Part shown: in pieces, positions 9,699 through 33,152 of the stretch
Numbering within the stretch: the first letter of the stretch is position 1
Layout of the letters: each line of letters opens with the position of its first letter
Assembly (NCBI GenBank): GCA_001897355.1
Contig: MKST01000011.1
Location: 629,960 to 693,959, forward strand
Direction: 5' to 3'
Source of the DNA: Solirubrobacterales bacterium 67-14
Lineage (GTDB): Bacteria; Actinomycetota; Thermoleophilia; Solirubrobacterales; 70-9
DNA: 64,000 nucleotides
The notes under the pieces: generated by a model
What the model saw: the letters and a program-made list of their open reading frames with translations, nothing else
The model's database searches: none
Told to the model about the DNA's origin: nothing
Program-made: the position numbers and the translations under genes

Positions 9699-9788
9699 GC
9701 TTAACTGCAAGTCGGGCGGGGTCCGACCCGCCCTCCACGTAAAACCCGTCCGATCACAGAAATAGCTGACGGATGATCGGACTCCGCA
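9699..9788 (+). repeat. Two-hairpin repeat element, copy A
   Basis: Begins with GCTTAACTGCA (9699-9709), then hairpin one (GGGCGGG 9714-9720 with CCCGCCC 9727-9733), linker ending AAACCCG (9742-9748), and hairpin two (GTCCGATCA 9748-9756 with TGATCGGAC 9774-9782, 17-nt loop) followed by TCCGC. The same order of motifs is found in three further copies (21682, 21800 and 33057). It occupies the gap between the GNAT-like gene and the small gene, both on the minus strand. Read on the minus strand, hairpin two is followed by GGGTTTT, so it could also terminate the GNAT transcript. Confidence 0.65.
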
Positions 9789-21339: not shown

Positions 21340-21678
21340 GTGGAAGTTGCCGCCACCGCCGATTCGCACTCGATCACCAGCAGGCCGATGCCCCAGCACC
21401 TGCAGGCCCTCGAACGTGCGAACCGGGTTCGTCTCGCCCGCGCCGCCCTCAAGCGGTCGATCGCCAGCGGCGAGGTTTCGGTCACCAAGGTGATCACCGA
21501 ATGTCCCTGGCAGACCGAGACGATGACCCTCTCGGAACTGCTCCGCGCCCAGTCCCGCTGGGGCCGGACCCGGACCCGCAAACTCCTGTCCTCGGTCGGC
21601 CTGAGCGAGAACAAACGACTTGAAACCCTGACCGAGCGCCAACGAATGCTCCTGGTCAGTCACCTGCGCCCTCATTGA
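21340..21678 (+). CDS. mihF: Actinobacterial integration host factor mIHF
   Basis: 112 aa from GTG 21340 with GGGAGG 7 nt upstream; a longer open frame from 21085 encodes leader sequence that is Pro/Gly-rich and unrelated to the family. The helical block LERANRVRLARAALKRSIASGEVSVTKVI and the helix-two-turns-helix-like GRTRTRKLLSSVGLSENKRLETLTERQRMLL are the mIHF/sIHF core that binds DNA and compacts the nucleoid. In many actinobacteria this gene precedes gmk; here a pair of repeat elements and a convergent membrane protein gene follow instead. Confidence 0.88.
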   Translation: MEVAATADSHSITSRPMPQHLQALERANRVRLARAALKRSIASGEVSVTKVITECPWQTETMTLSELLRAQSRWGRTRTRKLLSSVGLSENKRLETLTERQRMLLVSHLRPH

Positions 21679-21681
21679 GGC

Positions 21682-21780
21682 GAGGTGGCACGGATGGAGC
21701 CGGCCCAACCATCCTTGAATCTCGTGGGCCGGCGGGTTTCTGTTGTCGCCCGGCGTAGACCGGGCGACATGCAGTTAAGC
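21682..21780 (-). repeat. Two-hairpin repeat element, copy B
   Basis: Read on the minus strand: GCTTAACTGCA, hairpin one with 10-bp arms TGTCGCCCGG/CCGGGCGACA and loop TCTACG, then AAACCCG, then hairpin two GCCGGCCCA/TGGGCCGGC with a 17-nt loop, then CTCC. On the plus strand it begins 3 nt after the mIHF stop. It forms a tandem pair with the unit at 21800, 118 nt away. Confidence 0.75.
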
Positions 21781-21799
21781 CCTGGGAGGGGCTCTGTCC

Positions 21800-21899
21800 G
21801 AGGCGGCACGGGCGGAGCCGGCCCATCCATTCTTGAATCTCGTGGGCCGGCGGGTTTCCGTTGCGTCCCGGCGTAGACCGGGACGCTTCTTATTTAAGC
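21800..21899 (-). repeat. Two-hairpin repeat element, copy C
   Basis: Tandem partner of the unit at 21682, about 80% identical. On the minus strand it starts GCTTAAATAA, which contains the last codons and TAA stop of the membrane protein gene. Hairpin one is GCGTCCCGG/CCGGGACGC: three base pairs differ from copy B on both sides so that pairing is kept, while the loop TCTACG is unchanged. The linker AAACCCG, hairpin two (GCCGGCCCA/TGGGCCGGC, loop containing CGAGATTCAAG) and CTCC are shared. Confidence 0.75.
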
Positions 21900-22393
21900 T
21901 TGTAGGTGAGTCCGCCGGAGGCTCGCTTGAACTTTTCCCTCAGCTGCCAGAAGGCGAGGGCGGCGAGGGCGACTCCGATCACCATGCATTGCCAGAGCAC
22001 GAGCTTCGCCACGAAGAAGGTGAGGCCGAGGGCGATCACGTAGACCATCCCGGCCATCAGGGTGGTGTGCGAGCGGTAACCGGCGAAGTGTTCGCGGATC
22101 GCGAGTTCCAGGCCGCCGAGTGAACCCAGCCCGAGGCCGATCACGAGCTGGACCGCGTTCTTGTTGATCGCCCCGAGGACGATCAGGACCAGGCTGGCCA
22201 GGACGGAGATCTGAACCAAGGGGAAGTTCCCCCAGGGCGCCGGCGGACGTTCATCGGCTGCCTTCGCTCTGCCCTTCGAGGCGACCGGACGGCCGGACGG
22301 CTCGGCGTCAGATGTCTGCTCAGCCGCCGGCGCCTGCGGGGCCGGTCGTCTGGCCTTGCGGCGCTTCCTGCTTCGCTTCTTCTGACTCGCCAT
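21890..22393 (-). CDS. Four-helix membrane protein with basic N-terminal tail
   Basis: 167 aa. Residues 1-55 are basic and Ala/Pro-rich (ASQKKRSRKRRKARR), followed by four hydrophobic segments and a short basic tail (LREKFKRASGG). Its start lies inside the redoxin gene, overlapping its last 74 nt, which implies tight translational coupling at the end of the YrbE operon. No known domain is recognised. The stop codon falls within repeat element copy C. Confidence 0.7.
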   Translation of the reverse strand: MASQKKRSRKRRKARRPAPQAPAAEQTSDAEPSGRPVASKGRAKAADERPPAPWGNFPLVQISVLASLVLIVLGAINKNAVQLVIGLGLGSLGGLELAIREHFAGYRSHTTLMAGMVYVIALGLTFFVAKLVLWQCMVIGVALAALAFWQLREKFKRASGGLTYKLK

Positions 22394-31547: not shown

Positions 31548-33062
31548 ATGGAACCGACGGCAGCAACCGAGTCAATTTCCGTGATGAACCCGGCGACGGG
31601 CGAGCAGGTCGGGTCGGTCCCGGTCGATTCCGCCGGTGATGTCGCGGCCGCCGTTGCCCGGATCCGCGGCAACCAGCCCGCCTGGGAGGCGCTCGGCTTC
31701 AAGGGCCGCCGCAAGTGGCTGAACGAGCTGCGCGATTGGCTGCTCGACAACTCCGACCGGGTCGCCGACACGCTCAAGGCGGAGAGCGGCAAGGTCCGGG
31801 CCGAAGCGACGATCGAGACTCCGTACCTGGCCGACCAGATCAACTTCTACGGGTCCAAGGCGGAGAAGTTCATCGGCGAGCAGAAGGTCCGGCCCAACTC
31901 GATGCTGGCCGCCACCCGCAAGCTGCGGCTCCAGTACCGGCCCTACCCGGTGGTCGGCCTGATCAGCCCCTGGAACTTCCCGCTCGTCCTTTCGCTGGGT
32001 GACGCGATCCCAGCCCTGATGGCCGGCGCGGCCGTGGTGATGAAGCCCTCCGAGATCACCCCGCTCGGCCTGAACGAGATCGTCGACGCCTGGCGCAACG
32101 AAATCGGCGCCCCGGACGTGATGACCGTGGTCAACGGCGGGGCCGAGACCGCCACCGCCCTGATCGACCACTCCGACTTCGTCGGCTTCACCGGCTCCGA
32201 CGTGACCGGCAAGAAGGTCATGGCCCGCGCCGCGGAAACCCTCACCCCGGTCAGCCTGGAGCTGGGCGGCAAGGATCCGCTGATCGTGCTCGAGGGCGCG
32301 AACCTGGAGCGGGCGGCCAACGCCGCCACCTGGGGTGGCATGCTCAACTCCGGCCAGATGTGCATCTCGGTCGAGCGGATCTACGTCGAGGACGCCGTCT
32401 ACGACGAGTTCGTCGACCGTCTCACCACCAACGTCGAAAAGCTCGAACAGGGCGTCGACGGGGAAACCGCCACCTGCGACGTCGGTGCGATGACCATGAT
32501 GTCGCAGCTCGAAAAGGTCGAGAAGCAGGTCGATGACGCGGTCGCCGCCGGCGCCAAGGTGCTGACCGGCGGCAAGCGCGGCGAAGGCCCCGGCCAGTGG
32601 TACGAGCCGACCGTGCTGGTCAATGTCACCCCGGAGATGAGCGTGGTCGAGGACGAGACCTTCGGCCCCGTCGTGACCGTGACCCGGGTCGCCGACCAGG
32701 AGGAGGCGATCCGCCTCGCCAACGACAGCCGCTACGGCCTCTGCGCTTCGGTCTTCGGTCCCCGTGGCCGGGCCGAGAAGGTGGCCCGCCGGGTCGAGGC
32801 CGGGGCGGTCAACGTCAACGACATGATCTTCAACATGCTCGCCCCCAGCCTGCCGATGGGCGGCTGGAAGGAATCGGGCATCGGCTACCGCAACGGCGAG
32901 TACGGGATCCGCAAGTACTGCCGCTCCGAGGCGATCGTCAGCGCCCGCACCCTGCTCGGCTCCGAACCGCTCTGGTACCCGTACAACAAGAGCCGCCACG
33001 CCCTGGTCAACAAGATGACCCGCTTCATCGGCGCCCGCGGGCTTCGCCGCTTCCGCGGCTAA
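31548..33062 (+). CDS. NAD(P)-dependent aldehyde dehydrogenase
   Basis: 504 aa. The catalytic Cys at about 272 (NSGQMCISVER) and general-base Glu at about 238 (SLELGGKDP) are present, along with ISPWNFPLVLSLGDAIPALMAGAAVVMKPSE for cofactor binding and the late ETFGPVVTV. The Lys/Ser of the P-S-E loop is compatible with NADP use. The C-terminal extension (LLGSEPLWYPYNKSRHALVNKMTRFIGARGL) is typical of succinate-semialdehyde/aldehyde dehydrogenases in actinobacteria. It may oxidise aldehydes from the preceding dehydrogenases, but that link is only positional. Its stop codon lies in the first bases of repeat copy D. Confidence 0.87.
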   Translation: MEPTAATESISVMNPATGEQVGSVPVDSAGDVAAAVARIRGNQPAWEALGFKGRRKWLNELRDWLLDNSDRVADTLKAESGKVRAEATIETPYLADQINFYGSKAEKFIGEQKVRPNSMLAATRKLRLQYRPYPVVGLISPWNFPLVLSLGDAIPALMAGAAVVMKPSEITPLGLNEIVDAWRNEIGAPDVMTVVNGGAETATALIDHSDFVGFTGSDVTGKKVMARAAETLTPVSLELGGKDPLIVLEGANLERAANAATWGGMLNSGQMCISVERIYVEDAVYDEFVDRLTTNVEKLEQGVDGETATCDVGAMTMMSQLEKVEKQVDDAVAAGAKVLTGGKRGEGPGQWYEPTVLVNVTPEMSVVEDETFGPVVTVTRVADQEEAIRLANDSRYGLCASVFGPRGRAEKVARRVEAGAVNVNDMIFNMLAPSLPMGGWKESGIGYRNGEYGIRKYCRSEAIVSARTLLGSEPLWYPYNKSRHALVNKMTRFIGARGLRRFRG

Positions 33063-33152
33063 CTGCAGTCGGTCCGGTCTTCGCCGGACCTCCCAATTCA
33101 ACCCGCCCCTCCCACTTCCAACCACAAATGGTTGGGAGGGGCTCTATCTACG
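33057..33152 (+). repeat. Two-hairpin repeat element, copy D
   Basis: GCTAACTGCA (33058-33067) includes the TAA stop of the aldehyde dehydrogenase. Hairpin one GGTCCGG (33071-33077) with CCGGACC (33084-33090), loop TCTTCG; linker ending AACCCG (33100-33105); hairpin two GCCCCTCCCA (33105-33114) with TGGGAGGGGC (33133-33142), 18-nt loop ending ATGGT; then TCTATC. Architecture and short conserved motifs match copies A-C although both stems have different sequences. It fills the space between convergent genes. Confidence 0.65.

What the first reader, a model, noticed from the sequence alone, without database searches (positions are those of the whole stretch)
21682..21899. Tandem pair of structured elements with compensatory base changes
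Two ~100-bp units, about 80% identical and 118 nt apart, each fold into two hairpins in the same order. In hairpin one, three adjacent base pairs differ between units on both strands (TCG/CGA in one, CGT/ACG in the other, read in one arm and its partner) while the stem length and the loop TCTACG are kept. That is the signature of selection on a folded RNA (or a cruciform), not on sequence. The units lie between convergent genes and the stop codon of one gene is embedded in one unit. I cannot match the pair to a known riboswitch, REP or terminator family.
Basis: seen in the sequence. Interest (0 to 1): 0.85.

Follow-up and report, generated by a model that had tools for sequence, protein, structure and literature searches.

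The report
Two-hairpin repeats inserted at gene ends
The pair belongs to a dispersed two-hairpin DNA repeat, so far seen in one genus of actinobacteria, that inserts at gene ends, can supply the facing gene's stop codon, and looks like a transcription terminator on one strand.

Summary
In detail: two 84-nt units (89% identical, 118 nt apart), two hairpins each, with a three-base-pair double-sided change in one hairpin. They belong to a dispersed family. A covariance model finds at least 86 copies of hairpin 1 in the 3.2-Mb genome, four in the window. Pairing is kept in 99.7% of cells, and 8 of 9 pairs change on both sides. A second covarying hairpin and a T-rich tail follow in nearly all copies. 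With the model, 8 of 18 genomes of the genus (Solirubrobacterales) carry 9-83 copies; the searches of plasmids, phages and viral contigs found none. Some junctions are empty in congeners. At both window junctions compared, the facing gene now ends at a TAA in the element's tail; at a third site up to 13 residues are read from the element. Solitary copies favour convergent junctions (35 of 74; 71 of 365 control junctions). Best reading: a non-autonomous REP-like repeat, without a consistent GTAG/CGTC tag or a RAYT, acting as a gene-end cassette: probable terminator on one strand, stop codon on the other. The pairing changes alone do not prove RNA selection; module exchange and replication template switching give the same pattern. 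New variant of a known kind.

The parts
21681..21779 (+). Unit 1: weak 5' box, hairpin 1, linker, hairpin 2 (type A), tail TGCAGTTAAG
   Evidence: outer edges approximate
21696..21739 (+). Hairpin 1 of unit 1 (model R1 match, 60.6 bits)
21744..21769 (+). Hairpin 2 of unit 1: TGTCGCCCGG-CGTAGA-CCGGGCGACA
21783..21807 (-). Remnant of a third, inverted unit (5' box and 5' arm GAGCCCCTCCC) between the two units, overlapping the 5' flank of unit 2
   Evidence: (match to C11:343953-343977, 25 nt, 96%)
21799..21898 (+). Unit 2: same anatomy; tail TTCTTATTTAAG
21814..21857 (+). Hairpin 1 of unit 2 (62.2 bits)
21863..21886 (+). Hairpin 2 of unit 2, followed by TTCTTATTTA: called as an intrinsic-terminator-like site on the + strand
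21890..21892 (-). TAA stop of the convergent gene, inside the tail of unit 2
21340..21678 (+). Upstream convergent gene, 112 aa; Pfam H2TH_5 match below its cut-off (24 against 27 bits; resemblance to actinobacterial IHF is recalled)
21890..22393 (-). Downstream convergent gene, 167 aa, no Pfam match
9742..9785 (-). Third window copy, hairpin 1 (GTCCGATCA subfamily); hairpin 2 at 9708-9737(-)
33099..33145 (-). Fourth window copy, hairpin 1 (GCCCCTCCCA subfamily); hairpin 2 at 33065-33094(-); its tail holds TAA 33060-33062, the stop of the aldehyde dehydrogenase gene 31584-33062(+)

Best explanation
The pair belongs to a genus-specific family of about 100-nt non-autonomous repeats of the REP/BIME kind. 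Each unit has a weak 5' box, hairpin 1 with a mostly conserved loop start (CCAT), hairpin 2 (7-10 pairs, hexaloop), and a T-rich tail of about 10 nt, usually with TTA. Copies insert at gene ends, mostly with the tail beside a stop codon. Once in place a copy acts as a gene-end cassette: on the strand from the GAGCC end to the tail, the two hairpins plus the T-rich tail work as an intrinsic terminator for RNA coming from the left, while the same tail, read on the other strand, gives the facing gene its TAA. Shown: repeat family, linked hairpins, kept pairing, presence/absence between congeners, stop codons lying in the element. Inferred: terminator activity and the means of spread.
For: 86 own copies at E<=0.011; 86 recovered from the fetched loci. 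99.7% of 773 cells paired, 113 cells changed on both sides against 24.4 in shuffles, 0 of 500 as high. Hairpin 2 follows hairpin 1: 48 of 51 hairpin-2 matches (types B'/C) are linked, 43 of them at one fixed spacing. Insertions: no unit at window 33099 in 7 of 7 congeners compared, at L027a in 5 of 5, at L093a in 4 of 4. Stops: own LTYKLK-TAA against a last residue R in 6 of 6 congeners at site 1; RRFRG-TAA at site 2; at L093a up to 13 residues and the TAA come from the unit. Terminator: G.U 13 versus A.C 1 in hairpin 1 on the + strand; tails 39.7% T and 21.7% A (about 35% T without the nearly fixed first base), TTA in the first 16 nt of 58 of 81 tails versus 1.4% of 5000 random 16-mers; scan hit at 21863-21886. 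Location: 35 of 74 classified solitary copies convergent versus 71 of 365 junctions. Selection after insertion: the hairpin-1 stem at L090a is identical in own, G012 and G015 (one G.U change in G001) while the loop centre varies.
Against: Among solitary copies between tandem genes the orientation is against a pure + strand terminator: 21 '--' and 11 '++'. The minus strand has the better folding z-scores. Many tails are of the TGCAGTTAAG kind, only moderately T-rich. No expression data. No mobilising gene found: Y1 transposase and RVT_1 have no match in the 8 carrier genomes, though these assemblies are 73-96% complete. No target-site duplication was recognised. Gene context rests on a home-made gene caller and on control stretches that hold no copy outside the window. 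Two of the 13 G.U cells come from L026, a decayed copy, and the model itself favours G.U over A.C.
Confidence: 0.6

Rival explanations
1. A pure selfish REP-like repeat: copies spread by an unknown activity and survive only where insertion does no harm, at gene ends; hairpins are needed for mobility (folded single-stranded DNA), not for host function.
For: The tail sits at a gene 3' end in 56 of 74 solitary copies and often brings a stop codon, which tolerance alone would explain; excess of '--' over '++'; patchy presence within the genus; 4 head-to-head pairs, an arrangement also known for REPs.
Against: Stem kept base for base at L090a in three species while its loop varies; T-rich tail and G.U bias fit RNA; no Y1 transposase match in carriers.
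Confidence: 0.25
2. The paired changes are produced by template switching in replication (palindrome correction) and need no selection on RNA. This can hold together with the other readings.
For: Perfect inverted repeats (arm 8 or more) lie within 60 nt beyond hairpin 2 in 15 of 86 copies, against 8 of 375 gene 3' ends, 8 of 166 gene starts, 7 of 315 random stretches and 5 of 86 on the element's own left side; at L030a the extra arm ATTGCTCAT is absent from G012 and G001. Few intermediate states: 13 G.U and 6 mismatches in 1109 cells. Mechanism published (PMC8794818, abstract and opening).
Against: Does not explain the G.U over A.C bias or the conserved loops; part of the variation is exchange of ready-made modules. 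The excess over gene starts and over the left side is only about three- to fourfold.
Confidence: 0.35
3. A cis-regulatory or small RNA family fixed between convergent genes.
For: Covarying stems, mostly conserved loop start, loci L090a and L090b shared by four species.
Against: Presence/absence between congeners, divergent and tandem sites, no Rfam match. The seven window neighbours given to Pfam are not of one kind.
Confidence: 0.08

Closest known systems
REP / BIME repeats (GTAG and CGTC superfamilies; PMC3733652, 12 passages read)
   Same: Short palindromic repeats, intergenic, favouring convergent and unidirectional junctions, often within 20 bp of ORF 3' ends, dimers in several arrangements, subfamilies with alternative complementary stems, termini that give stop codons (TAG) to flanking ORFs, G.T pairs in stems.
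   Different: No consistent GTAG or CGTC tag; each unit is a linked pair of two different hairpins, about 100 nt long; the stop is TAA from a T-rich tail; no RAYT in carrier genomes (that paper lists CGTC families as lacking transposase genes too).
RAYT-associated REPs (PMC2817692, three passages read)
   Same: Copy number and palindromic units.
   Different: PF01797 has no match in any of the 8 carrier genomes.
Intrinsic (bidirectional) terminators with compensatory evolution (PMC5381666, passages read)
   Same: Hairpin (here followed by a T-rich tail) between convergent genes; compensated stem changes.
   Different: Those terminators were compared locus by locus; here one sequence family is dispersed and appears at new junctions.
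MITEs and other small mobile repeats (PMC2229807, search listing with start of abstract only)
   Same: Small, non-coding, dispersed, present or absent between relatives.
   Different: No terminal inverted repeats or target-site duplications recognised (by eye).

Membership tests
REP (GTAG/CGTC) | GTAG or CGTC tag at one end | tested here: not met
   Left end: GTAG 4, CGTC 0, GACG 8 of 86. Tail region: GTAG 6, CTAC 7, CGTC 3, GACG (CGTC inverted) 17 of 86. The GACG of type-A copies lies at the foot of a variable stem, so it is not a family-wide tag.
REP (GTAG/CGTC) | Palindrome in many extragenic copies | tested here: met
   86 copies; one copy (L021, doubtful call) inside a called gene and a few overlapping gene ends
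REP (GTAG/CGTC) | Location near 3' ends, convergent junctions, dimers, stop codons supplied | tested here: met
   10 of 86 copies are in close pairs, four head-to-head and one tandem
REP with RAYT | Y1 transposase (PF01797) in the genome | tested here: not met
   No match in the 8 carrier genomes (6 of 41 genomes searched had one); carrier assemblies 73-96% complete
Intrinsic terminator | G+C-rich hairpin followed by T-rich stretch on one strand | tested here: inconclusive
   Scan hit on hairpin 2 of unit 2; three further + hits in the units use other pairings; unit 1's hairpin 2 was not called. Tails average 39.7% T.
Intrinsic terminator | Transcripts end there | not testable with these tools
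   no RNA data
MITE / IS-derived element | Terminal inverted repeats and target-site duplication | tested here: inconclusive
   none recognised by eye in the junction comparisons; congeners too distant for exact empty sites
Rfam families | Score at or above gathering threshold | tested here: not met
   0 matches in the window; best near the units 21.5 bits against a threshold of 106

The most novel reading that the evidence does not exclude
A self-spreading 'gene-end cassette' that closes two genes at once (RNA termination for one strand, translation stop for the facing gene) and is copied to new junctions without a transposase, by hairpin-provoked template switching during replication, leaving inverted duplications of the target beside its tail.
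Probability: 0.15. Interest if true: 0.8.

Novelty: new variant of a known kind. Interest (0 to 1): 0.55.

Why it matters
REP-like repeats with a known means of spread use RAYTs (recalled), and the word Actinobacteria does not occur in the REP survey consulted. Here a family without tag or RAYT rewrites gene ends in several species of one actinobacterial genus and changes C-termini. It also gives a natural series (86 own copies, orthologous loci in four species) for separating selection on RNA hairpins from template-switch 'correction', a question raised in PMC8794818.

Tried and rejected
A closing stem between the 5' flank and linker, hairpin 2 or tail: matched flanks pair no better than flanks swapped between copies (z -0.77 to 0.74 in four tests). 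Known RNA family: none. RAYT or reverse transcriptase as mobiliser: PF01797 and PF00078 have no match in the carriers; no other transposase family was sought. Carriage by phage, plasmid or virus: two exact patterns found nothing in viral contigs, and blastn of the pair found nothing in plasmids or phages. Replication-strand bias: copies are roughly split by strand on the large contigs, and GC skew of the window and 20 sampled stretches gave no usable ori/ter signal. In one search MAFFT misaligned long and short stems, so the model was built from 26 short-stem copies. Rows dropped: one search kept 49 of 58 stem candidates (9 rejected by loop, length, 3' motif or by hand, among them L013, a genuine copy that the model later recovered); L026 was left out. 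Hairpin-2 alignments A5 and A6 hold only copies in which my finder saw a clean stem (38 and 19 rows, 24 and 17 distinct), so their percentage paired is partly by construction. My finder gave no clean hairpin 2 in 12 of 86 copies; most of these are type B by eye, and L026, L091 and L117:1060 have none that I recognise. One search scored 150 of 3509 first-look candidates, so 86 is a lower bound; one search used stricter filters that can lose weak copies.

Correction made on re-reading: L030b is not an own-only insertion. G012, G001, G003 and G005 lack the unit there, but G015 keeps a lone type-C hairpin 2.

Literature: searches for such repeats in Solirubrobacterales, Thermoleophilia or Actinobacteria listed nothing relevant (two unrelated papers, none in the others); two searches listed the REP papers. 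This does not prove that nothing is in print.

Full report
Observation. The window holds two direct repeats, 21681-21764 and 21799-21882, 89% identical over 84 nt and 118 nt apart. Each has hairpin 1 (9 bp, 17-nt loop) and hairpin 2 (9-10 bp, hexaloop CGTAGA). Hairpin 2 differs by the quoted double-sided change. The units lie between a + gene ending at 21678 and a - gene whose TAA is at 21890-21892.

Family. BLAST of the region found 37 places in the genome. A covariance model of hairpin 1 (26 short-stem copies) found 89 places at E<=1, 86 of them at E<=0.011, with 150 of 3509 first-look candidates scored. 86 matches were also recovered from 74 fetched sources. Pairing: 99.7% of 773 cells are standard pairs, 8 of 9 pairs have changes on both sides, and 113 cells are double changes; shuffles average 24.4 such cells and 0 of 500 reach the observed value. 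Subfamilies share whole stems (GCCGGCCCA, GCCCCTCCCA, GTCCGATCA and others), so much of this variation is between modules, not between single events.

Hairpin 2 and tail. Hairpin 2 has type A (9-10 pairs, loop CGNAGA) and types B, B' and C (GGA + stem + loop + GAC), in which GA faces GA; that last point is my reading. Among 17 distinct type-A stems 6 of 9 pairs change on both sides (the number of pair types does not exceed shuffles, 201 of 500), and among 24 distinct B'/C stems 4 of 7; rows were chosen for having a stem. A second model finds 51 B'/C hairpins in the genome, 48 linked to hairpin 1 and 3 alone. Conservation fades about 8-11 nt beyond hairpin 2 and roughly 16-19 nt before GGAGCC. 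The tail is T-rich (39.7% T, 21.7% A; about 35% T without its nearly fixed first base) and has TTA, a TAA on the other strand, in its first 16 nt in 58 of 81 tails.

Strand. In hairpin 1, distinct own and congener copies show 13 G.U, 1 A.C and 5 other mismatches among 1109 cells read on the + strand. A cruciform would favour neither; the model's own preference for G.U may add some bias, and two G.U cells come from the decayed copy L026. The T-rich tail and the terminator-like hit of unit 2 point the same way. Against: z-scores are better on the minus strand, and solitary copies at tandem sites show 21 '--' and 11 '++'.

Distribution. An exact-pattern scan of one genome for each of 84,980 species, for the GCCGGCCCA subfamily only, gave eight stretches, all in three Solirubrobacterales MAGs, HKST-UBA63, 66 and 67. 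With the model, 8 of 18 genomes of the genus have 9-83 copies at E<=0.01 and the other 10 none; of 43 genomes outside the genus, four have one or two borderline hits. In one search the carriers compared (G015, G012, G001, G011) match the window stretch at 79-83% in their longest pieces and G003 and G005 at 75-76%, but at another locus G003 and G005 match as well as the carriers do; no tree was made, so a single origin is a guess.

Insertions. At site 1 (the finding) G015 and G012 each have one unit with other stems, G001 has a lone hairpin 1, and G003, G005 and G014 have none. Site 2 (window 33099) shows no unit in the seven congeners compared. L093a is own-only among four compared and L027a among five. 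L030b is absent from G012, G001, G003 and G005, while G015 keeps a lone hairpin 2 there. L090a and L090b are shared by own, G001, G012 and G015 and absent from G003 and G005. At L090b bp 4 and 5 change on both sides between orthologues, with one C.A mismatch at bp 2 in G001; at L090a the stem is identical in three species with one G.U in the fourth, while the loop centre varies. Gene ends were rewritten: site 1 LTYKLK-TAA versus six congeners ending in R; site 2 RRFRG-TAA versus RRFR-stop in four and related ends in three; L093a DVEGVER followed by up to 13 element-coded residues.

Context. Solitary copies: 35 convergent, 21 '--', 11 '++', 7 divergent, 2 unassigned. Control junctions in the window plus twenty 20-kb stretches: 71 convergent, 67 divergent, 227 tandem. 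The stretches were chosen by hand and hold none of the 86 copies; the gene caller is home-made and left parts of some stretches without genes. In 40 of 56 solitary copies with a gene 3' end at the tail, the stop lies 20-49 nt from the end of the hairpin-1 match, that is about at the end of hairpin 2.

Mechanism. Most likely a non-autonomous REP-like insertion that serves as a gene-end cassette: terminator on one strand, TAA on the other. Mobility is inferred from presence/absence between congeners; the agent is unknown. Perfect inverted repeats near the tail (15 of 86 copies; 8 of 375 gene ends, 8 of 166 gene starts, 7 of 315 random stretches, 5 of 86 left sides) suggest template switching at these sites, which could also homogenise stems. 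This is the main caution against reading covariation as RNA selection.

Known or not. It behaves like REP/BIME repeats as described in PMC3733652 (location, dimers, stem subfamilies, stop codons; passages read), but lacks a family-wide tag and a RAYT, so I do not file it as a REP. New variant of a known kind.

Noticed in passing
Within 60 nt beyond hairpin 2 in 15 of 86 copies, e.g. L125, L105, L017, L013, L037, L033; also G012 site 1 (L129) and G015 at L030a (L174): Perfect inverted repeats (8-13 bp arms, short loops) near the element tail, about eight times commoner than at control gene 3' ends but only three to four times commoner than at gene starts or on the element's left side; one arm can be a new inverted copy of the flanking gene's start or end.
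   Followed up: partly
L181/L190/L194/L207 (G011); L187/L200 and L214 (G015, G012); L018 and L027 near 8080 (own), L217 (G001); L090 just left of 1057 (own): Other long palindromic repeats sit at the same kind of gene junctions in this genus (AACTGAAACTCGG.., GGTGGGTATG.., GAGGTTGAAGTT.., GGTGGGTCGGATTTCC..), seen by eye.
   Followed up: no
L023:1013-1179: One unit ends about 8 nt before a tRNA-Lys(TTT) gene read in the same direction.
   Followed up: no
G000 C11:121-337 kb and C7:85-320 kb: Stretches of over 200 kb without a copy, although the large contigs average 2.4-3.9 copies per 100 kb; not tested for significance.
   Followed up: no
L098, L101, L022, L119; G001 at L090b (L235): Partial duplications of the 3' arm of hairpin 2 plus tail, suggesting slippage or repeated insertion at the tail end.
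   Followed up: no
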